A DNA stretch of 62,125 nt from Ignavibacteriales bacterium. Its GTDB lineage: Bacteria; Bacteroidota; Ignavibacteria; T3Sed10-11. The stretch is taken from positions 1 through 62,125 of the forward strand of contig PWTU01000135.1 in NCBI GenBank assembly GCA_003562775.1, given 5' to 3'. The position numbers and the translations under genes were made by a program. The notes under the pieces were generated by a model that made no database searches, was not told the DNA's origin, and saw only the letters and a list, made by a program, of their open reading frames with translations. Each line of letters begins with the position of its first letter. Within the stretch, counting starts at the first letter, position 1. Shown in pieces: positions 4,182-14,763 of this stretch.

Positions 4182-6722
4182 ATGTTAAAAACTCTCAAAA
4201 TGCGTATAAATATCGATAAAATTATGAACATAGTTGCTTCCGGTTTTTTTACGGTTTTCCTTTTTTTGATTGTGATCAATACAACATTGCTCTCTCAAAC
4301 CGACCCCTCTGTTCCGCAGGTAACTGCGGTACGGACACCTGAACCTCCCGTTATTGACGGCCGGGTTGACGATGAAGTTTGGCAACGTGCCCCTGTCATT
4401 GATACATTTTGGCAAAGGAGACCGGATGAAGGAGATCCTGCGACCGAGCGCACCGAAGTAAGGATTCTTTACGACGACAATGCTCTTTATATTTCATTTA
4501 TTTGTTATGATAGGAATCCCGACGAAATTGTTCGACGTTTAACGCGACGTGACAGGGACGTACCGTCCGATCGTGTTTCGATTGGAATTGACAGCGATTT
4601 TGATCGTAAAACTGCCTTTATTTTTGAGGTAAACGCTGCCGGGGTAATGCGTGATTTCTTTATGTACGATGACGGGAACGAAACCGATATGAACTGGGAT
4701 GGACTATGGCAGGCGGAGGTTGCAACTCGACCCGACGGTTGGAGTGCGGAGTTTAAAATTCCCTATCAGGCACTGCGATTTTCCGATCAAGATGAGCATA
4801 TCTGGGGTATTAATTTTGCACGAGAGATAGACAGAAAAAATGAATGGGTGTTCTGGTCGCTTATTCCCCGGGAAGCTCGCGGATGGGTTTCACGGTTCGG
4901 AATATTGCAAGGGATTCATAATATCGATCCGCCGCGTTCGTTGTTGTTTCTACCGTATACACTTGGTGGGGGAACAAGCTGGCCGTCGGGCCAAATACCT
5001 GCGCGTGTAAACGATTTCGATCACGAATTTCGTGCGGGATTGGATGTTGAATACGGGATATCTAACAATACGATTTTGAATATTACCCTCAATCCCGATT
5101 TCGGACAGGTAGAGGTCGATGAAGTCGTGCTGAATTTGACGGCATTCGAAACATTCTTTCCGGAAAAACGCCCGTTCTTCCTTGAACGCGCATCGTTGTT
5201 TGAAAATATCGGAGCGAATTTCGGGGAACCGATACAAACAAGATTGTTTTACTCACGCCGTATCGGGAGACAACCCGTACGCTATCATACCTGGCCCGAT
5301 ACACTGGATACCGATGAGTGGCAAATCGCTTCAAATCCTTCTGTTACGCCGATTATAGGTGCTGCAAAGTTAACGGGACGGACAGAAAGAGGATTGGAGT
5401 TCGGCATTCTGAATGCGACTACCGCAAGGACATATAAAGTTTTAAAGGGCGTGCATGATGAGCAATTACGGGTGAATACGGAGAAGGTTGCAAATTATTC
5501 CGTTGCACGGGGCCTTTATCAACTATCCGGTCCGGCTTCGTATATCGGTGGTATAGTGACCGGAGTTTTACGGGAAGGTGATAATGCATGGCAGGCATAT
5601 TCGGGGGGAGTCGATTGGCAATATAATACCGACGGGTATGGTTTTACAACCAATGGACTTCTTGCAACAACGTACCGAACAACCGGTGAGAAGCATGAGC
5701 AGGGATATCAACTATTTGCAAATTTCGGGTCGATGGGAGAACAAAGGTGGGTATGGTTAAGCGGGATTGGGTTGTCGACAAAAGACTTTAATACCAATGA
5801 CATCGGGTTTAATGTCATGAACAATTATGCCCTGGCACATTCGTGGATTCAATACAGAAAACTTGAAACTTTCGGTCCGATAAGAGAATTTCGTTTTAAC
5901 CAGAATTATTTTGCAGTGGCAACACTGGAATCCTGGCAATTCTGGATTGCCGGCATCAATCCTAATATATCCATTCAATGGAAGAATTACTGGAATACAA
6001 ACCTCGGGATGACAATCGAGATTGGCGGTAGAGATCCGTTTGAATCCCGCGGAATGGGTCTTTTTCAATTGCCAAATTCATTGAATACCTGGATCAATGT
6101 ATCGACGGATAATCGAAAAACGGTGGTTCTCAGTCCACGCTTCAGTTACAGTTTCAATGAATATGGAATGAGATCGTGGTCGTCCGGCATACCCGTAACG
6201 TTGAAAGCAGGGCATAGAACGGAAATGAGTGTCAATCCATCGATTAATGTTCGTTCGAAACAAACAGGTTGGGTTGCTAATGTGCGGGGTATCGACGGGG
6301 TAACTGAACGCGTTTCTGTATTCGGGCACCGTGACGTTCACCAGTTTAATTTAGTTTTTCGTGCGATTCATTCATTTTCGCGTGACCTGACACTGCAAGC
6401 ATATACACAATATTTCTGGGCTCGGGGAACATATAAGCGATTTTTCCGTCTTCTTCCGGACGGGACACTTGCTGAATTGCAGGATCAGTATGACCGGGAT
6501 ATATTTCCTAACCCGGATTTCAATAGGGGTAATTTAAATATAAATCTTATTCTTCGTTATGAATACCGTCCCGGTTCGACAATTTTCCTTGTCTGGACGC
6601 ATGGTCGTTCGATTTTGCTTCAGGATACAGGCATAGATGCGGGGGAATTTATAAATCATACCTTCAGATCACCGGCTACGGATGCGGTGTTGTTAAAGTT
6701 TACGTATGCGATCGGGATATAA
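4182..6722 (+). CDS. DUF5916 outer-membrane protein with CBM9-like N-terminal domain
   Basis: The 846-residue product starts with a basic N-terminus and a hydrophobic signal segment (about residues 17-38). Residues ~45-240 resemble the CBM9-like fold (PPVIDGRVDDEVW, later YDDNALYISF and WSAEFKIPYQALRF), which binds carbohydrate in other proteins. The rest (~280-846) is rich in alternating aromatic strands and ends with a hydrophobic/aromatic tail (KFTYAIGI), as in the DUF5916 beta-barrel family common in FCB bacteria. Its function is unknown; a surface role linked to glycans is an inference from the CBM9-like domain and nearby GH92/GH42. Its 3' end overlaps the convergent hydrogenase protease gene by 23 bp. 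ATGs at 4200 and 4224 are alternative starts, all before the signal segment. Confidence 0.85.
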   Translation: MLKTLKMRINIDKIMNIVASGFFTVFLFLIVINTTLLSQTDPSVPQVTAVRTPEPPVIDGRVDDEVWQRAPVIDTFWQRRPDEGDPATERTEVRILYDDNALYISFICYDRNPDEIVRRLTRRDRDVPSDRVSIGIDSDFDRKTAFIFEVNAAGVMRDFFMYDDGNETDMNWDGLWQAEVATRPDGWSAEFKIPYQALRFSDQDEHIWGINFAREIDRKNEWVFWSLIPREARGWVSRFGILQGIHNIDPPRSLLFLPYTLGGGTSWPSGQIPARVNDFDHEFRAGLDVEYGISNNTILNITLNPDFGQVEVDEVVLNLTAFETFFPEKRPFFLERASLFENIGANFGEPIQTRLFYSRRIGRQPVRYHTWPDTLDTDEWQIASNPSVTPIIGAAKLTGRTERGLEFGILNATTARTYKVLKGVHDEQLRVNTEKVANYSVARGLYQLSGPASYIGGIVTGVLREGDNAWQAYSGGVDWQYNTDGYGFTTNGLLATTYRTTGEKHEQGYQLFANFGSMGEQRWVWLSGIGLSTKDFNTNDIGFNVMNNYALAHSWIQYRKLETFGPIREFRFNQNYFAVATLESWQFWIAGINPNISIQWKNYWNTNLGMTIEIGGRDPFESRGMGLFQLPNSLNTWINVSTDNRKTVVLSPRFSYSFNEYGMRSWSSGIPVTLKAGHRTEMSVNPSINVRSKQTGWVANVRGIDGVTERVSVFGHRDVHQFNLVFRAIHSFSRDLTLQAYTQYFWARGTYKRFFRLLPDGTLAELQDQYDRDIFPNPDFNRGNLNINLILRYEYRPGSTIFLVWTHGRSILLQDTGIDAGEFINHTFRSPATDAVLLKFTYAIGI

Positions 6723-7206
6723 TGGGGTGATAGGATGATTCCCGCTTTTCCAATCTCCAACTTAATAATTTTTCCCTTGCCTTCTCGGTGAACTGTGGCA
6801 ATGCGTCTTCAATCGATGGGCTGAGGCACTCCTGGAAATCGAAGGGGTTTTCCACTTCCATTGCAAGTATATAGATTTTATCGGGGAATGCGATGTTTAG
6901 GTTTTCTGCAAGGCGGAAAATTTCGGGTATACCTACGTAATGAGGTGAGCAAGCAACGATATTTTTAAAGTCGTCTTTTGTTAATTCGAGAATAGTTCCC
7001 GGCGGGTGTTCACCGGTTACGATTGCATCAAGAAGAAGGACATACTTGTATCCTTCCATATATTCCATTAAAGCAAAACCGGCGACGGGTGCTTCGATAA
7101 CGTCTACTATGCCGTCGAACTCTTCCTTTATCCTTCTTGCCGTTAAGAGACCGACGGCATCGTCTCCCAATATGTCATTTCCGACACCGAGTACAAGTAT
7201 ACTCAT
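6700..7206 (-). CDS. [NiFe]-hydrogenase maturation endopeptidase
   Basis: The 168-residue protein has the HyaD/HycI/HoxW family signature at the N-terminus: LVLGVGNDILGDDAVG, with the acidic residues that coordinate nickel in the family. These proteases cut the C-terminal extension from the large subunit once the Ni-Fe centre is inserted. The adjacent large subunit, MvhA, ends with 25 residues after the DPCxxCxTH motif, so it has a tail for this enzyme to remove. It is the last gene of the hdr/mvh operon, 6 bp after mvhA. The accessory HypA-F proteins are not in the window and must be elsewhere. Confidence 0.9.
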   Translation of the reverse strand: MSILVLGVGNDILGDDAVGLLTARRIKEEFDGIVDVIEAPVAGFALMEYMEGYKYVLLLDAIVTGEHPPGTILELTKDDFKNIVACSPHYVGIPEIFRLAENLNIAFPDKIYILAMEVENPFDFQECLSPSIEDALPQFTEKAREKLLSWRLEKRESSYHPIISRSHT

Positions 7207-7212
7207 TTCATA

Positions 7213-8676
7213 TTATCTATGTATTTTTTTAATAAGATTTCCGTCTTTGTCGTTTATATGGATTGTCAGCGGCATCTGACCGGGAAGAGTGTGTGTTGCG
7301 CACGCGTTGCAAGGATCGTATGCACGAAATGCCATTTCAACCATATTGAGCAATCCTTCGGAGACGTTCCCGTTTTTTATGAGACCCTTTGCCGCCTTCT
7401 CCACGCTCATTGCAATTCGACCGGAGTTATTCTGTGTCGCAACAACGAGATTGGTTTTCACGATAAGCCCGTTTTCATCTGTTTCATAATGATGAAACAG
7501 TGTTCCGCGGGGCGCTTCTACTGCGGCAATTCCGATCGTCGGAGTATTTTTCGGAATTACCCGGATATCGGTACTTGTTATTTCGGGATCGTTCACGAGC
7601 TCATTCATTTTCTCCGCTGCATAAATCATTTCAATAACACGAGCCCAATGATTTGCCAATGTATGATGAACCGGTTTTCCGTTTAATGTTTTGTAGAACT
7701 CATCGTACGCTTTCTGCGCTTCGGGTGTTGTCAATCCTTCGGAGGCATTCAGCCGTGCAAGAGGTGCGACGGAAAATATTCCACTTTCCGCCCCGTCGGT
7801 AAATCCTTTCCATCCGATTTGCTTCAGGTAAGGGAAGTTGACATAGCTCCACGGCTCAACATGTTCTGCAATGTGTTCTGCATATTCCCGGGGATCGAAT
7901 TGAAGGATTTCATTGCCGTTCGGATCGACGACACGGATATCCCCGTCATAGAAGTTAAGATTGTTGTCTTTGTCTACTATTCCCATATAGTGGGTTTTAT
8001 GTGTAAATTCTTCCGATGTAATGAGTTCGAGATAGTTATTATTTTTAAGAACAATGTCTTTGAAAACTTGAAGTGTGAATAGAGCAAAATCAAGACCGTC
8101 TTTCGCCAGTTCTTTCAATTTTGGCAGCTCGTCCTTTTCTATGCTTTTAGCTACGCCGCCGGGGAGACCGAAGACCGGGTGTATGATTTTCCCACCTGCA
8201 TAGGAGATAAAATCCCGGAGCCGGCGGCGTATTGAAATAACTTTTTTCCCAACGTCCACACCAACTTTTTGAATAACACCAACAACATTTCTCAATTCTT
8301 TCGGAGCGTGTGGTCCGACAATAAAATCCGGCCCTCCAAGTATATAAACATGCAGGGCGTGATCTTCGAGTATGAACGTGTTGTAGATTAATTCACGGAT
8401 TTTTTTTGCAGCGGGAGGTGGTTCAACTTTATAGAGATCGTCAAGCGCTTTTGTTCCTGCCGTATGGTGGGCAGTCGGGCAAACGCCGCAAATTCTGCTT
8501 GTTATCTGAGGCATATCTTCAGCAGGCCGCCCGACGCTGAAAATCTCAAAACCCCGAAGTTCCGGGATTTGATAATATGCCTTTGCAACATTTCCTACAT
8601 CATCGAGGAAAATTTCTATTTTGCCATGTCCTTCAAGACGAGTGATAGGGTCTATCGTAATTTTTTGATTTTTCAT
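7213..8676 (-). CDS. mvhA: [NiFe]-hydrogenase large subunit, MvhA-type (group 3)
   Basis: The 487-residue protein carries both nickel-binding motifs: RICGVCPTAH at residues 61-70 and DPCNACATH at 454-462. The four cysteines needed for the Ni-Fe site are present. Twenty-five residues follow His462, the segment removed during maturation. Length and the neighbouring MvhG and MvhD genes point to the F420-non-reducing (MvhADG, group 3c) type, a cytoplasmic enzyme that passes electrons from H2 through MvhG and MvhD to HdrA. Assignment to group 3c rests on gene context as well as sequence; a phylogeny of the large subunit would settle it. Confidence 0.93.
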   Translation of the reverse strand: MKNQKITIDPITRLEGHGKIEIFLDDVGNVAKAYYQIPELRGFEIFSVGRPAEDMPQITSRICGVCPTAHHTAGTKALDDLYKVEPPPAAKKIRELIYNTFILEDHALHVYILGGPDFIVGPHAPKELRNVVGVIQKVGVDVGKKVISIRRRLRDFISYAGGKIIHPVFGLPGGVAKSIEKDELPKLKELAKDGLDFALFTLQVFKDIVLKNNNYLELITSEEFTHKTHYMGIVDKDNNLNFYDGDIRVVDPNGNEILQFDPREYAEHIAEHVEPWSYVNFPYLKQIGWKGFTDGAESGIFSVAPLARLNASEGLTTPEAQKAYDEFYKTLNGKPVHHTLANHWARVIEMIYAAEKMNELVNDPEITSTDIRVIPKNTPTIGIAAVEAPRGTLFHHYETDENGLIVKTNLVVATQNNSGRIAMSVEKAAKGLIKNGNVSEGLLNMVEMAFRAYDPCNACATHTLPGQMPLTIHINDKDGNLIKKIHR

Positions 8677-8707: not shown

Positions 8708-9679
8708 TTAATCCAGCGAGACCTTTCGTCTTAACAACGAACCGGCAAGTGCATACCGGTAGAATGTCCCGATCGGATCGGGTATTGTTTCAAGTACTTT
8801 CTCAATTTCATTTTCTTCCAACCCGGCAATAGCTGAGCACACGGAGGATAAAATTTTTGCTCCTTGATCTTTCACCCGTGAAGTAGGTCCAAAGCATCCG
8901 GTGCAGGGCATATTACCTATTATACAGCGTGCTTCACATCCGCCGCGTGTGGCGGGTCCCATACAGAATATTTCCTGTGCAAGAAAACATTTTTCCGGGT
9001 CGATATTTGTCCGGTGCGGCCGCTTAAATTGCGTATATTCTATTTCTTCCGGCTTGCTGTCTTTTTTCGGACAGTCATCGCACAGCGCAGTATTCGGTGC
9101 GAGCACTGAACCTTTCTCCGGCGCCTTTCCTTCAAGCAATGCAAACAACGCATTTTTTAATAGTTTCGGTGTTGGCGGGCATCCGGGAAGGTAGTAATCA
9201 ACGTCGATCACCTGATCCAGTGTTCGCACTACATTTCTGAACTCCGGGAGGGTAACCGAATAGCCATTATCTTTATATCTTACATCCGGCACTATTTTGT
9301 TCTTATTTACAACTGTAGGAGAATTGTGATAAACATAGTGTAGGATTTTGTCGCGTCCGAACTGGTTGGCAAGACCCGGAATTCCTCCTGTGTGTGCACA
9401 TGAACCGTAGGCGATGATGAGTTGGCTTTTTTTCCTCAGAAGTCGCGCCATTTCTTCCTGCTCCGATGTCCGTACCGATCCGTTTATCAACGTTGCGAGG
9501 ATCGACCCATCGTCCATTGCTTCAACATCCCTCTTTTTAAAATCCATTGCGACGGGCCAAAAGACTATATCAATGGAGTCAAGGACGGTGAGAATGTCTT
9601 CTGCTAAATCGACTACCGATTCTTCGCATCCTCCGCATGATGCGCACCAGTAAAAACCGACCTTCGGCTTATCAGGCAT
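8708..9679 (-). CDS. mvhG: [NiFe]-hydrogenase small subunit, MvhG-type
   Basis: The 323-residue protein starts with CASCGGCEES (Cys12, 15, 18), the proximal [4Fe-4S] ligands of cytoplasmic hydrogenase small subunits. YGSCAHTGG and PGCPPTP, conserved in the family, follow. The C-terminal third is cysteine-rich (CFLAQEIFCMG, GGCEARC, CTGCFGPT) and fits two further iron-sulfur clusters. There is no Tat signal, so the enzyme is cytoplasmic, as expected for MvhG. It overlaps the end of mvhD by 8 bp and lies 31 bp before mvhA, consistent with one transcript. It should relay electrons between the MvhA active site and MvhD. Confidence 0.92.
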   Translation of the reverse strand: MPDKPKVGFYWCASCGGCEESVVDLAEDILTVLDSIDIVFWPVAMDFKKRDVEAMDDGSILATLINGSVRTSEQEEMARLLRKKSQLIIAYGSCAHTGGIPGLANQFGRDKILHYVYHNSPTVVNKNKIVPDVRYKDNGYSVTLPEFRNVVRTLDQVIDVDYYLPGCPPTPKLLKNALFALLEGKAPEKGSVLAPNTALCDDCPKKDSKPEEIEYTQFKRPHRTNIDPEKCFLAQEIFCMGPATRGGCEARCIIGNMPCTGCFGPTSRVKDQGAKILSSVCSAIAGLEENEIEKVLETIPDPIGTFYRYALAGSLLRRKVSLD

Positions 9680-10184
9680 GTTGTACCTCCAAATTAGTAG
9701 TTAATTCGTGTTCCAGGTCGTCCATTTCCTTATCCCATTCTTTGAATTTTTCCGGGAGATTCAAGGGACCGAGCTCTTTAATTTTTTTGGTCATATCGTT
9801 CACGACCAGTTTCACTTTTTCACCTTCCGATGCAGAAATCCATTCTAGCCGGAGCCGGTCGTTTTCTATACCCATTTCCTTGAGCATTTTTTTGAGCATC
9901 AGAAATCGGCGAAACGTTTTGTGGTTACCGTTGAGATAGTGACAATCACCAAAATGACATCCGCCGATCAAAACACCATCGGCGCCTTTTGCAAATGCAC
10001 TGAGAATGAATTGTGGATCGACGCGCCCCGAGCACATCACACGAATAATACGAATGTTCGGTGCATAACGTAATCTCGATACACCGGCGAGGTCGGCTGC
10101 TGTATAGGTACACCAGTTACAGAAGAAAGCAATTATTCGTGGCTGCCATTCTGAGTGAGTTGATGTGTACTGCGAATTACTCAT
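9672..10184 (-). CDS. mvhD: Hydrogenase/Hdr-linking iron-sulfur protein, MvhD-type
   Basis: The 170-residue protein has the MvhD pattern: FCNWCTYTAADLAG with Cys22 and Cys25, then MCSGRVDP (Cys51) and GADGVLIGGCHFGDCHY (Cys76, Cys81). In MvhADG-HdrABC complexes this subunit carries a [2Fe-2S] cluster and is the contact that hands electrons to HdrA. The C-terminal ~45 residues (KIKELGPLNLPEKFKEWDKE and following) are acidic and helical. It sits between the GcvH-like gene and mvhG and overlaps the latter. Confidence 0.92.
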   Translation of the reverse strand: MSNSQYTSTHSEWQPRIIAFFCNWCTYTAADLAGVSRLRYAPNIRIIRVMCSGRVDPQFILSAFAKGADGVLIGGCHFGDCHYLNGNHKTFRRFLMLKKMLKEMGIENDRLRLEWISASEGEKVKLVVNDMTKKIKELGPLNLPEKFKEWDKEMDDLEHELTTNLEVQHA

Positions 10185-10202: not shown

Positions 10203-10883
10203 TCATTGATTCAAATAACTTAGGTCCGTAAATAAAGGATCGGTCTTAAAAAAATATTTAATGATATCTTCCCATTCATCGTCGGTGAATAACTCGCTTA
10301 CCCCTTCAATAATTTCGCCGCCATCGGTACAAACAGGACCTAAATCATAAGAAAAACGCCGGATAAGCTGTTCACGGGCTATATCCAACCATCGCAGGGC
10401 TGTTTCACCATGCAATAGGTTGTTCAGGTTTTGTCGAAGGGTTGAAGATTTAATTTTCAATATCCAGCCGGCTTCATAGGGAGATTCGTTTATTATGTCG
10501 GGGTTCTTAATCAGATTGGAATTAATCTCAACGACTTCACCGGTAACAGGCGACGATTGAGGCAATATTTTTGTGTTATGCCATAGTTTCCATACGGTTT
10601 GCCCCTGTTCAATATGTGTCCCGGTGGGTGGTACATCCAATCGTTGTACCTTTCCTATTACGCGCCGGGCAAAATCATTGACTCCGATTAAGGCGTAATT
10701 GTCGATAATTTTGACCCACGTATGACTTGGATGATAAAATAGTTTAGATTTCATAGCAGACGGTTTTGTCGATTGAAACGACGATTTAACTAAAGCCGCT
10801 TTTTCTCGTTCTTTTTTTCTCATTGAATAATAATCGATTATCAGAAAAATAATTACCGTAAGTATGAATAGTCCTGCTACCAT
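10203..10883 (-). CDS. Membrane-anchored GcvH-like protein, lipoyl lysine not conserved
   Basis: The 226-residue protein begins with one hydrophobic helix (residues 2-18) and a basic MRKKEREK stretch, so it should be anchored with its bulk in the cytoplasm. Residues ~48-150 align without gaps to glycine cleavage H protein: HPSHTWVKI, the GVNDFA turn, SPVTGEVVEIN and ESPYEAGWILKIK. In GcvH a lysine in ESVKAAS carries lipoate. Counting from the conserved glycine (94) to the proline of SPVTG (112), the equivalent residue is Thr104, and a lysine lies one place later (105). An extra C-terminal ~65 residues are acidic. No other glycine cleavage gene is present. Its position between hdrA and mvhD suggests a part in the Hdr/Mvh complex, perhaps tethering it to the membrane; that is inference. 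Confidence 0.8.
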   Translation of the reverse strand: MVAGLFILTVIIFLIIDYYSMRKKEREKAALVKSSFQSTKPSAMKSKLFYHPSHTWVKIIDNYALIGVNDFARRVIGKVQRLDVPPTGTHIEQGQTVWKLWHNTKILPQSSPVTGEVVEINSNLIKNPDIINESPYEAGWILKIKSSTLRQNLNNLLHGETALRWLDIAREQLIRRFSYDLGPVCTDGGEIIEGVSELFTDDEWEDIIKYFFKTDPLFTDLSYLNQ

Positions 10884-10895
10884 AACATTTCCTCA

Positions 10896-12893
10896 TTAGT
10901 ATTGCACGAGTAATCCGTCGATTTCGCTGAAGATTTCTTCATCGTCAAAAAGGTTTTGTATAATGGAACCGGATGGGCAGGCCGCAACGCACGTCCCGCA
11001 TCCTTTACACAGTGCTTCATTAATTTCTGCCTTCAACTTCTCTTCGATAAAGGAAATTGCAGAGTAGGGGCAGAGTGGGATGCATGATTTGCATCCTGAG
11101 CATTCTTCTTCGAAAATAGATGCGGTAACCGGCTCCAGTTCCATAAATCCCTTGTCGATCAGCGCCAATGCCTGAGCAGCGGCTGCACCTGCCTGAGCAA
11201 CCGAGTCCGGAATGTCTTTCGGACCCTGACAGGCGCCTGCAATGAATATTCCCTCCGAAGCGGTATCTACCGGCGCAAGTTTTGGATGTCTCTCAAGGAA
11301 AAAACCATCGGTTGCACATGATATGTTAAATAACCGGCGCATTTCCTGAGCGTTCTCCCGCGGTACGATTCCCACCGAAAGAACAACCATATCGACCGGA
11401 ATTCGACGCACCGCCCCGATAAGCGTATCCTCAACTCTGATGATAAGTTTATCTTCTTCTTCTTTTTCTGCCGCCCAGTCCGTTACCTCAGCAACCCTAC
11501 CTCGAACAAAGTGAACGCCCTCCTGTAATAATTTATCGTAAAACTCTTCATATCCTTTGCCGGGCGTTCTCATATCGATATAGAAATTGTATATTTCGGC
11601 GTCGCTGTGTTCTTTGATCAGGTGTGCAAGCTTTAAAGAATACATACAACATACCCGTGAACACCAATTATTGGTTTTTGCATCGCGTGATCCGACACAA
11701 TGAATAATACCCACTGTTTTGGGTTTTTTCCCGTCACGTAAAATTACCTCGCCGCCGGTCGGTCCAGCGGCATTCACAAGCCGTTCTACTTCGAGTGATG
11801 TATAGACATTCTTATATGTACCATATCCATAATAGGGAGTTTTTTCGGGATTGAAGGTTTGGAATCCAGTCGCCAGAATTGTGGTACCGATTTCTATCTC
11901 TTCGTATTTCTCTTGCTGGTCAAAATCGAACGCTTCGCGGTCGCACACTTCCACGCAGGTTTGTTTACATTTCCCTCTTTTGACCTGAATGCAATTTTCC
12001 GGATCTACGACCACGACCTGCGGGGTCGCCTGGGGAAAGGGGATGTAAATAGGTTTTCTGTTGCTCAAACCGACGTTAAATTCATCTTTGTATTTTGCTT
12101 CTTTGTAAACGCATGCGTCGATGCAATCGAGGCAGCCGACACATAAATCTTCATTGATATATCTTGGTTTTCGTTTTATTTTTGCCTTAAACGAACCGAC
12201 AAATCCGCTAAACTCGACTACCTCCGAATAGGTCCATAATGTGATATTCGGGTGCCTGTTTACATCGGACATTTTCGGTGTGAGAATACACGCGGCACAA
12301 TCGAGTGTAGGAAAAGTTTTATCGAATTGTGCCATGTGACCGCCGATAGTAGGATCACGTTCGACGAGATATACTTTTTTCCCTCCGTTGGCGAGTGTTA
12401 ATGCGGCGTGAATACCCGCTATACCTCCTCCGACTATTAACACATCAGGGTTGATCGGCACCTGCCTTTTTTCCAATGCCTTATGAAACGTAACCCGTTG
12501 TATAGCCGCGCGCGACAAATCGATCGCTTTTTGCGTAGCTTGTTCCTTATCCTCATGTACCCAGGATGCGTTTTCCCGGATATTCACCATATGGAAATAA
12601 TAGGGATTCAAACCGCCTTTTTCGGTCGCCAGCCGGAAGGTGTTTTCATGGAGGAGGGGGGAACACGAGGCGACGACAATCCGGTTAAGATTATGCTCTT
12701 TAATATCTTCCTGTAAAAGTTCCTGTCCGGGGTCGGAGCACATATATTTATAATCCCGGCAGACGACCACTGACGGTATTTTTTTAATTACTTCCGCAAC
12801 TGCGGCAACATCGATAGTTCCGGCTATATTGTGCCCGCAATGACAAATATAATATCCTATTCTGATTGATCCATTACTACCTGTGGAAGACAT
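10896..12893 (-). CDS. hdrA: Heterodisulfide reductase subunit A-like (FAD, electron bifurcation)
   Basis: I choose the ATG at 12893 (665 residues) because AAAGGAGG lies just upstream; the longer frame to 13031 would run 122 bp into hdrB. Features in order: cysteines 17 and 19 near the N-terminus, an FAD-binding VLIVGGGIAGIHAAL at ~151-165 with LVERD at the end of the second strand, the TLDCAACILTPKM cysteines (199, 202), a ferredoxin motif CVGCLDCIDAC (251-261), a second cysteine cluster (CKQTCVEVC), the GIFIAGACQGPKDIPDS flavin motif, and a two-cluster ferredoxin domain near the C-terminus (CSGCKSCIPLCP and CKGCGTCVAACP). This is the architecture of HdrA, whose FAD bifurcates electrons between a high- and a low-potential acceptor. 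Confidence 0.93.
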   Translation of the reverse strand: MSSTGSNGSIRIGYYICHCGHNIAGTIDVAAVAEVIKKIPSVVVCRDYKYMCSDPGQELLQEDIKEHNLNRIVVASCSPLLHENTFRLATEKGGLNPYYFHMVNIRENASWVHEDKEQATQKAIDLSRAAIQRVTFHKALEKRQVPINPDVLIVGGGIAGIHAALTLANGGKKVYLVERDPTIGGHMAQFDKTFPTLDCAACILTPKMSDVNRHPNITLWTYSEVVEFSGFVGSFKAKIKRKPRYINEDLCVGCLDCIDACVYKEAKYKDEFNVGLSNRKPIYIPFPQATPQVVVVDPENCIQVKRGKCKQTCVEVCDREAFDFDQQEKYEEIEIGTTILATGFQTFNPEKTPYYGYGTYKNVYTSLEVERLVNAAGPTGGEVILRDGKKPKTVGIIHCVGSRDAKTNNWCSRVCCMYSLKLAHLIKEHSDAEIYNFYIDMRTPGKGYEEFYDKLLQEGVHFVRGRVAEVTDWAAEKEEEDKLIIRVEDTLIGAVRRIPVDMVVLSVGIVPRENAQEMRRLFNISCATDGFFLERHPKLAPVDTASEGIFIAGACQGPKDIPDSVAQAGAAAAQALALIDKGFMELEPVTASIFEEECSGCKSCIPLCPYSAISFIEEKLKAEINEALCKGCGTCVAACPSGSIIQNLFDDEEIFSEIDGLLVQY

Positions 12894-12909
12894 GTGTATT
12901 TTTCCTCCT

Positions 12910-13788
12910 TTAATTAAAAACTTCCGATACGGGAATGAGTAATCTTTGCAAACCGAGTGTTTTTTTTGATAATCCGAATGCGATCCCCATAAGTTGAGTA
13001 AAATAAATAACCGGTATTTCGATATCGTCATTGTTATATCGCATAATATCGGTTTGATAACACTCGAGATTAAACTGGCACAGCGGACAGGTGGTCACCA
13101 TGACATCCGCTTCTCTGCGATGCGCTTCTTTCAGAAGCCGGTAATTGAGTCGCAATCCTGCTTCCTGGATTGTCCCCATAAGTGTTCCGCCGCAACAACG
13201 GGTTTTCAGAGGCCAATCGACCGCTTCAGCGCCAAGCGCCGTTACTAAATTGTCCATTGTCATCGGGTAATGCGCTTTGTCGAATGCTTCATAAGGACGA
13301 ATTATCTGACATCCGTAGTATGATGCAACTTTGATATTTTTAAGCGGATTTTTTACCCGTTTGGCAATCTCCTGATATCCAACGTCATTTACAAGAACAT
13401 CCAATGGGTGCCGGATTGTTATATTATTATTATTATCAAGGCCGATTTCTTGTAATCCCCGGTGAATTATATCTCTGACGCCCGAGTGTTCGGCAAGATA
13501 TTTTTGCGTTTTGAGAAGTACCAGGTAACAGGCACTACAGGGTGCAATAATGTGGGTTTCTCCATTGGGTTCCGAATTGTTCTGATGGGCTGCGAGACCG
13601 AGATTCCTTGCTGCGAGACCGAATGCTTTGAGCTCGTCCACCGCCATATATGATGTTGCCCCGCAGCAATTCCAGTCGTTGATTTCTTCAACTTGAATAT
13701 CGAGCGCTTTGAACACTGCAAGAAGGGACTCTTCGTAGGATTTACCACTGCTTTTCAGCGAGCATCCGGGATAATAAAGATATTTCAT
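12910..13788 (-). CDS. hdrB: Heterodisulfide reductase subunit B-like (two CCG domains)
   Basis: The 292-residue protein has two complete cysteine-rich CCG domains: Cys9, Cys41-Cys42, Cys84/Cys87 in the first and Cys160, Cys198-Cys199, Cys234/Cys237 in the second. In HdrB these bind two noncubane [4Fe-4S] clusters at the disulfide-reducing site. All ligands are present, so the subunit should be catalytically competent. The disulfide substrate is unknown: CoM-S-S-CoB is methanogen-specific and no other thiol cofactor genes are visible. The start codon follows the hdrC stop directly (TAAATG), implying tight coupling. Confidence 0.93.
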   Translation of the reverse strand: MKYLYYPGCSLKSSGKSYEESLLAVFKALDIQVEEINDWNCCGATSYMAVDELKAFGLAARNLGLAAHQNNSEPNGETHIIAPCSACYLVLLKTQKYLAEHSGVRDIIHRGLQEIGLDNNNNITIRHPLDVLVNDVGYQEIAKRVKNPLKNIKVASYYGCQIIRPYEAFDKAHYPMTMDNLVTALGAEAVDWPLKTRCCGGTLMGTIQEAGLRLNYRLLKEAHRREADVMVTTCPLCQFNLECYQTDIMRYNNDDIEIPVIYFTQLMGIAFGLSKKTLGLQRLLIPVSEVFN

Positions 13789-14436
13789 TTACCGTAGTTC
13801 CTCCTTTCGTGTTTCGACAGCCCGTAATAGTTTCTGAAGTCCTTTTTTATCTTTGATTCCGTTTTCAAATAATGAGAGTCTTCCTTTTATCATCAAGCGT
13901 AATGCCAGCCGTGCGTTTCGTAATAAGTTGAATGGGTTGGTCAGCAGATACAGAGTGATAATGAGACGGCTTTCATTTTGCCGGCCATGTTTGAGCACCT
14001 GTCGATAAAATTTGTTTGCAAGCATCGGGATGGCAAACCGTTTCGGGTAAACACCGGCAATGATAGCTTCTCGTTTGAGCGCATACATCACATCGGTAAT
14101 TTTAATTTCGCGGGGACATTCGGATGTGCAGGCGTAACACGATGCGCACAACCAAATGGTAAAGCTGTTTAATACTTCTTCCCGCATACCTTCTTTTACC
14201 ATGGCAATGATTCTTCGGGGGGTATAATCCATATAGTGACTCAATGGACAGGTAGCGCTGCATGTTCCGCATTGTATACAACTGAGTAGCTGCTCACCGT
14301 AAGCAACGGCGCCGATTTTTTCGATGAATGTCCGGTCTAATTCGGATTCATACTTAATGCGTCTTCGTACAGTCTTATCCTGTTCTATACGACTCGGCTT
14401 TTTGAATTTTTTTGAAATCAAGAAATGAAAATTCAC
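13789..14436 (-). CDS. hdrC: Heterodisulfide reductase subunit C-like (2[4Fe-4S])
   Basis: The 215-residue protein has two [4Fe-4S] motifs, CIQCGTCSATCP (Cys53-63) and CASCYACTSECP (Cys97-107), as in HdrC, which carries electrons from HdrA to HdrB. The start is a GTG at 14436 with AAGGAG seven bases upstream. The N-terminal ~35 residues are basic and the C-terminal ~100 residues are helical and basic. It is the first gene of an eight-gene minus-strand operon. HdrC has no membrane segment, so the Hdr part is the soluble HdrABC type rather than HdrDE. Confidence 0.92.
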   Translation of the reverse strand: MNFHFLISKKFKKPSRIEQDKTVRRRIKYESELDRTFIEKIGAVAYGEQLLSCIQCGTCSATCPLSHYMDYTPRRIIAMVKEGMREEVLNSFTIWLCASCYACTSECPREIKITDVMYALKREAIIAGVYPKRFAIPMLANKFYRQVLKHGRQNESRLIITLYLLTNPFNLLRNARLALRLMIKGRLSLFENGIKDKKGLQKLLRAVETRKEELR

Positions 14437-14763
14437 GTAAGAACTCCTTGGTTAGGCATAAACAGAATTTTATACAATGTGAGTAATGTTGGATGTTTCT
14501 TCCACGCGGAAATACCCATTAGGATATTTTTTGCAATTTATATGCCATTCTTAAATTTTATGATAATTCCGTATTACGGGGTGTTTGGAGCAGTTTTTTA
14601 TTATTAAGATTGTATGCTTGTATTTATCGTGTTGGAAATTCCCGCATAAAAATCGGATAACCCGACACGGTCATAAATAATCCGGGAGGTTTCTCAAATT
14701 GATATTAAAGCGATTTTTAGCTAATTTAATAGGTTGTTTATTTTGAAGTTGAGCGAACCTATT
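14437..14763. other. Divergent intergenic region between hdrC and uvrA
   Basis: About 327 bp that must hold the promoters of the hdr/mvh operon (minus) and uvrA (plus). I see the AAGGAG ribosome site of hdrC next to 14445, and an imperfect inverted repeat with arms CGTGTTGG and CCGACACG (one mismatch) around 14628-14670. No convincing -35/-10 pair and no gene were found. Confidence 0.45.

What the first reader, a model, noticed from the sequence alone, without database searches (positions are those of the whole stretch)
10203..10883. Membrane-anchored GcvH-like protein without lipoyl lysine inside an hdr/mvh operon
The protein aligns without gaps to glycine cleavage H protein across the lipoyl region, but Thr104 replaces the lipoylated lysine and Lys105 sits one place later. 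It adds an N-terminal membrane helix and an acidic C-terminal extension, and lies between hdrA and mvhD with no glycine cleavage genes nearby. Lipoate-binding GcvH homologues (LbpA) are known partners of the sulfur-oxidising sHdr system; this one seems to be a different, probably non-lipoylated, membrane-tethered partner of a bifurcating Hdr/Mvh complex.
Basis: partly seen in the sequence, partly recalled or inferred. Interest (0 to 1): 0.7.

Follow-up and report, generated by a model that had tools for sequence, protein, structure and literature searches.

The report
Relocated non-lipoylated GcvH-like respiratory subunit
A membrane-anchored protein shaped like the lipoate carrier GcvH, but without the lipoate-attachment site, sits inside a hydrogenase/heterodisulfide-reductase operon of one soda-lake bacterium; it is a displaced copy of a widespread, apparently undescribed family that normally accompanies quinone-linked (NrfD-type) respiratory complexes and their two-component regulators.

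Summary
On the minus strand at 10203-10883 there is an intact 226-aa protein: one N-terminal membrane helix, a gap-free GcvH fold (Pfam GCV_H E=3e-25; AlphaFold2 pLDDT 89), Thr at the lipoyl position and a C-terminal extension. It lies between hdrA and mvhD of an hdrCBA-mvhDGA operon.

The interpretation needs changing. In 34 of 34 orthologous hdrA loci, one from the same genus, hdrA runs straight into mvhD: the association with Hdr/Mvh is confined to this lineage. The protein is a paralogue (support 99/97) of a TM-GcvH-like family ('GHL', my label). Across the class that family is encoded with a HmcB/HybA-like Fe-S protein and an HmcC/HybB-like NrfD protein (26 of 28 sampled non-genus loci), usually with a histidine kinase, a sigma-54 regulator and an archaemetzincin. 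Some relatives carry a receiver domain (REC-GHL).

The family is not lipoylated as a rule: 17 of 17 true GcvH of the class keep the lysine, only 16 of 135 GHL do, none in the EAVK motif.

Best reading: a non-catalytic adaptor on the cytoplasmic membrane face, duplicated from an NrfD-complex subunit and captured by the hdr/mvh operon. Function is inferred, not shown.

The parts
10203..10883 (-). GHL_A1-type protein: N-terminal TM helix (aa 2-32), non-lipoylated GcvH domain (aa 47-147, T104 at the lipoyl position), C-terminal helical extension with DGG motif (aa 187-189)
10896..12893 (-). hdrA. The 711-aa ORF opens at 13031 inside hdrB; orthologues suggest the real start is near 12893 (MSSTGSNGSIRIGYYICHCGH)
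12910..13788 (-). hdrB (two CCG domains)
13789..14436 (-). hdrC (Fe-S subunit)
9672..10184 (-). mvhD (FlpD domain); follows hdrA directly in all 34 other orthologous operons
8708..9679 (-). mvhG, [NiFe]-hydrogenase small subunit
7213..8676 (-). mvhA, [NiFe]-hydrogenase large subunit (VhuA/VhuU-like)
6700..7206 (-). hydrogenase maturation protease

Best explanation
The gene encodes a lineage-specific paralogue of 'GHL_A1', a TM-anchored, non-lipoylated GcvH-fold protein. GHL_A1 is normally the first gene of a GHL_A1 - GHL_A2 - Fe-S(HmcB/HybA-like) - NrfD(HmcC/HybB-like) - GHL_B - histidine kinase - sigma-54 regulator - archaemetzincin operon. Shown here: the homology, the phylogeny, the operon context, loss of the lipoyl motif, and absence from all other sampled orthologous hdr/mvh operons. 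Inferred: the GcvH fold is a docking (adaptor) domain on the cytoplasmic face, held to a membrane partner by a strongly conserved helix, and not a swinging lipoyl arm. In this species the copy has been captured as a cistron of the hdr-mvh operon. There it most likely holds the soluble Hdr-Mvh complex at the membrane, near the NrfD-type menaquinone complex.
For: Tree: window + genus A1 clade 99/97, A1 versus A2 split 100/100 (one search agrees). Operon: 26 of 28 sampled non-genus loci have FD/NrfD within 3 kb, HK in 20, RR in 19, archaemetzincin in 15, several contigs being truncated. FD and NrfD best match HmcB (224 bits) and HmcC (332 bits), both below NCBIfam cut-offs. Lipoyl site: K in 17/17 true GcvH versus 16/135 GHL, Fisher p=9e-14. 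Confident GcvH-fold model, target-normalised TM-score about 0.8-0.9 to H proteins. Positive-inside topology C-in for 47 of 68 GHL_A, N-in for 7. 14 of 15 genus-invariant TM residues kept versus 52 of 77 in the two soluble domains, p=0.035. Compact operon junctions with a ribosome-binding-site-like sequence.
Against: No direct evidence of contact with Hdr, Mvh or NrfD. The association with hdr/mvh is seen once, so it may be a passenger. TM helices are the most conserved part in the whole genus, so their retention is only a weak hint. The gene is on a long branch (0.57) with lower GC (0.394 versus 0.43-0.47 for the operon), which fits relaxed constraint as well as a new role. The genome is a fragmented MAG (85% complete, 7% contaminated).
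Confidence: 0.5

Rival explanations
1. Passenger: the GHL copy landed in the hdr operon without a functional link to Hdr/Mvh. It still works with the genome's own NrfD complex (contig C382) or is drifting.
For: No other orthologous hdr operon has it. Orphan GHL pairs away from FD/NrfD exist in the genus (L062-L064). Long branch and lower GC. Its hairpin residues G103, K104 and R105, invariant in the genus A1 set, are all changed.
Against: 38 of 45 conserved A1 positions are kept, the ORF is intact, and it is fitted with 12- and 18-bp spacers between two co-directional genes.
Confidence: 0.3
2. Regulatory adaptor: GHL domains are output/docking modules of the two-component systems encoded beside NrfD complexes. 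In this species the copy places Hdr/Mvh under such control.
For: TM-REC-GHL and REC-GHL fusions, whose receiver residues look intact, sit in operons with a CxxCH-bearing histidine kinase, NrfD and multiheme cytochromes. HK and RR genes are also in the standard operon.
Against: The window protein has no REC domain and no HK/RR beside it. Operon co-location of HK/RR may only mean transcriptional control.
Confidence: 0.15
3. An LbpA-like lipoate-binding protein serving Hdr, lipoylated on Lys105 or by a dedicated ligase.
For: GcvH fold beside hdr genes; Lys105 is one place from the site.
Against: Position 105 is Arg in 58 and Lys in 35 of 135 relatives; the EAVK[AT] context is gone. The LbpA paper reports a strictly conserved lysine, two cysteines in most, and LplA/radical-SAM genes in the cluster (PMC6067878); none is seen here.
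Confidence: 0.03
4. Ordinary glycine-cleavage H protein.
For: Pfam GCV_H above gathering score.
Against: No lipoyl lysine, score below the GcvH equivalog cut-off, membrane helix and DGG extension, and a separate canonical-length gcvH in the genome.
Confidence: 0.01

Closest known systems
Glycine cleavage system H protein (GcvH; PF01597, TIGR00527)
   Same: Fold (target-normalised TM-score about 0.8-0.9), H-x-W and PY-x-x-GW motifs, gap-free alignment
   Different: No lipoyl lysine motif, N-terminal TM helix, C-terminal DGG extension, no gcv context, below the NCBIfam cut-off
LbpA of the sulfur-oxidising sHdr system (PMC6067878)
   Same: GcvH-like protein encoded beside hdr genes
   Different: LbpA keeps the lysine and has its own ligase; the operon here is hdrCBA-mvhDGA with no lpl or radical-SAM genes alongside; this protein has a membrane helix
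GcvH beside Hdr/[NiFe] genes in the Culexarchaeia Ehe cluster (PMC9723716)
   Same: GcvH-family gene co-located with HdrA2B2C2 and hydrogenase genes
   Different: Authors propose it carries a disulfide/lipoyl moiety for HdrB; an archaeal membrane-bound hydrogenase cluster; no claim of lysine loss in the passages read
Hmc / Hyb / Qrc (NrfD-family) menaquinone complexes (PMC6303296)
   Same: The family's usual neighbours are HmcB/HybA-like Fe-S and HmcC/HybB-like NrfD subunits
   Different: No GcvH-like subunit is described for these complexes in the passages read; scores are below family cut-offs
NF045810 GcvH_rel_desulf
   Same: One of the nearest named non-GcvH relatives (about 40 bits)
   Different: Far below its 150-bit cut-off

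Membership tests
GcvH (glycine cleavage H protein) | GCV_H domain/fold | tested here: met
GcvH (glycine cleavage H protein) | Lipoyl lysine in an ExxK hairpin | tested here: not met
   T104, and W101 in place of Glu; 17/17 true GcvH of the class have both
GcvH (glycine cleavage H protein) | Equivalog score cut-off | tested here: not met
   75-88 bits versus 116-117
LbpA (sHdr) | Strictly conserved lipoyl lysine | tested here: not met
   definition from PMC6067878
LbpA (sHdr) | Cluster with shdr genes and LplA/radical-SAM maturation genes | tested here: not met
   hdrCBA-mvhDGA only, no such genes alongside
GHL_A1 (defined here) | N-terminal TM helix + GcvH fold without ExxK + C-terminal DGG extension | tested here: met
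GHL_A1 (defined here) | Phylogenetic placement in the A1 clade | tested here: met
   99/97 and 100/100
GHL_A1 (defined here) | Operon with Fe-S + NrfD | tested here: not met
   Window copy is in hdr-mvh; the usual context is held by the C382 paralogue. The membership claim rests on sequence and tree, not on context
HdrABC-MvhADG complex subunit | Conserved presence in the operon | tested here: not met
   0 of 34 other orthologous operons
HdrABC-MvhADG complex subunit | Physical association | not testable with these tools
   needs pull-down or a complex structure

The most novel reading that the evidence does not exclude
GHL proteins are a new class of non-lipoylated, membrane-anchored GcvH-fold adaptors for NrfD-type quinone complexes, sometimes switched by phosphorylation (REC-GHL). 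In this species one was recruited to tie a soluble electron-bifurcating Hdr-Mvh hydrogenase complex to the membrane quinone pool.
Probability: 0.25. Interest if true: 0.75.

Novelty: new variant of a known kind. Interest (0 to 1): 0.52.

Why it matters
Genes with a GCV_H domain outside glycine cleavage are easily read as lipoate carriers. This family shows a whole branch that lost the lipoyl site and sits with NrfD-family respiratory complexes, and in some families is fused to receiver domains. If GHL is a docking or regulatory domain, it gives a handle on how anaerobic Ignavibacteria-like bacteria connect cytoplasmic redox enzymes with menaquinone. The window copy, a natural transplant into a bifurcating-hydrogenase operon, is a testable case of such a connection.

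Tried and rejected
First query used the + strand and failed. Search of genome contigs with the broad alignment had no pattern stretch; the narrow alignment found only genus members, so spread outside the phylum was not measured. In a phylum sample of 396 genomes 51 of 52 positives were in the own class. Plasmid tblastn gave only weak GcvH-type matches. PADLOC: nothing. PDB profile search: GcvH and generic lipoyl/biotinyl domains, the rest weak. NF045810 search in the genome and 14 control genomes: none over cut-off. Literature: no held paper contains both NrfD and GcvH. Considered and rejected: true GcvH, LbpA, lipoylation on K105, and bin contamination as the source of the window copy (the window's uvrA is 87% identical to genus members; contig C469, by contrast, is 99.4% identical to relative G004 and is probably contamination).

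Full report
WHAT IS THERE. The reported ORF is real, intact and on the minus strand (10203-10883, 226 aa). It matches Pfam GCV_H at residues 49-162 (E=3.4e-25), aligns gap-free with solved H proteins, and falls below NCBIfam's GcvH cut-offs. It is the fourth gene of hdrC-hdrB-hdrA-GHL-mvhD-mvhG-mvhA-protease, separated from its neighbours by 12 and 18 bp, with a ribosome-binding-site-like GAGGAAATGTT before its ATG. The AlphaFold2 model from 46 family sequences is confident (mean pLDDT 88.9): helix 2-32, H-protein fold to about 146, then helices 149-154, 159-176 and 201-212. Foldseek's 22 matches at E<=0.001 are all GcvH or GcvH-like structures.

LIPOYL SITE. In the class, 17 of 17 true GcvH proteins read I-E-[AT]-V-K-[AT] here. 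Among 135 GcvH-like relatives without that motif, position 104 is mostly N, G, D or K and only 16 have K; position 105 is R in 58 and K in 35 (Fisher p=9e-14 for K104). Neither Lys104 nor Lys105 is conserved, and R/K exchange at 105 argues against a modified lysine. The relatives were grouped as those without the motif, so the counts describe the family and are not an independent test of membership.

WHERE THE FAMILY NORMALLY LIVES. The own genome holds further copies: a tandem pair on C382 followed by a Fe-S protein, NrfD, histidine kinase, sigma-54 regulator and archaemetzincin, a set on C84 next to a QrcB-like molybdopterin subunit, and an ordinary-length gcvH on C30. Across the class the same order recurs: GHL_A1, GHL_A2, Fe-S, NrfD, GHL_B (Cys-rich N terminus), HK, RR, archaemetzincin. 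Of 28 sampled loci outside the genus, 26 have FD/NrfD within 3 kb and none has hdr/mvh; of the two exceptions, L150 is an ordinary gcvH and L137 ends at a contig edge. The Fe-S and NrfD proteins are nearest HmcB/HybA and HmcC/HybB, relatives of the menaquinone-reducing QrcD (PMC6303296). Most of the Fe-S proteins lack a Tat signal; some paralogues have one.

RECEIVER FUSIONS. In other families of the class the GHL domain is fused to a response-regulator receiver domain: TM-REC-GHL (380-400 aa) and REC-GHL (about 265 aa), both parts well above Pfam cut-offs. They lie with Tat-type Fe-S, NrfD, 13-heme cytochrome and a CxxCH-bearing histidine kinase. This ties the GHL domain to two-component signalling as well as to NrfD complexes.

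THE WINDOW COPY IS A ONE-OFF. HdrA orthologues (E<=1e-290) occur in 35 of 391 class genomes, the window's included. All 34 others were read: in each, mvhD follows hdrA with no GHL match between; the same-genus G004 operon (hdrA 75-76% identical) is among them. A tree puts the window protein with the genus GHL_A1 proteins (99/97), outside both genus paralogue groups (93/94 for those two together), on a long branch; the A1/A2 split is 100/100. So a GHL_A1 duplicate entered this hdr operon. In G002 and G005 the uvrA side of the window is syntenic but the hdr operon is not next to it, and no close hdrA was found in those genomes, so the operon itself has moved or been lost.

FUNCTION. Shown: homology, context, loss of the lipoyl motif. 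Predicted with good support: membrane anchoring with the domain inside. Inferred: without the lipoyl site, the GcvH fold serves as a binding surface. The anchor keeps 14 of 15 genus-invariant residues while the hairpin G103-K104-R105 is altered to N-T-K and the soluble domains keep 52 of 77. This fits an unchanged membrane partner and a changed soluble one, but the TM helix is the most conserved part in the genus generally, so the hint is weak. I favour an adaptor placing Hdr-Mvh at the membrane (0.5), against a passenger (0.3) and a phosphorylation-linked regulator (0.15).

NOVELTY. No held paper contains NrfD together with GcvH, and no model in the libraries searched names these proteins as a family of their own. 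Known neighbours are LbpA (PMC6067878) and the Culexarchaeia Ehe GcvH (PMC9723716); both are read by their authors as lipoyl/disulfide carriers. I rate this a new variant of a known kind: the fold is known, the family and its respiratory/two-component context appear undescribed. Absence from an open-access library is not proof of absence from the literature.

LIMITS. The genomes are MAGs, many fragmented; distribution outside the phylum was not measured; no complex modelling was possible; neighbourhood counts depend on contig ends; ORF calls in relatives are mechanical.

Noticed in passing
L039:1531-2733, L193:967-2115, L210:10888-12048, L211:8846-10048, L213:7939-9081: TM-receiver-GHL fusion proteins (380-400 aa), with shorter receiver-GHL proteins beside them, in operons with a CxxCH histidine kinase, Tat-type Fe-S, NrfD and 13-16-heme cytochromes.
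   Followed up: partly
L075, L072, L071, L133, L138 and others: Archaemetzincin gene at the end of the GHL-NrfD-HK-RR operon in 15 of 28 sampled non-genus loci; role unknown.
   Followed up: partly
L011:6834-14288 (own genome, contig C84): QrcB-like molybdopterin subunit, cytochrome, Fe-S, NrfD and three GHL proteins, with Cys-rich N-terminal parts, in one cluster.
   Followed up: partly
GHL_B proteins, e.g. L075:10438-11235, L070:3560-4294: Conserved N-terminal cysteine motif (C-I/V/L-W/Y...G....C-D/E...C..C..D) that could bind a metal or Fe-S cluster.
   Followed up: no
window 12893-13031: The 711-aa hdrA ORF start overlaps hdrB by about 120 bp; the true start is probably near 12893.
   Followed up: no
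G000 contig C469 (L010): 99.4% identical over 3.4 kb to relative G004 contig C5: probable bin contamination or shared strain.
   Followed up: yes
window 14436-14734: Beyond uvrA the hdr-mvh operon is absent in G002 and G005 although the other side is syntenic: the operon's location varies in the genus.
   Followed up: partly
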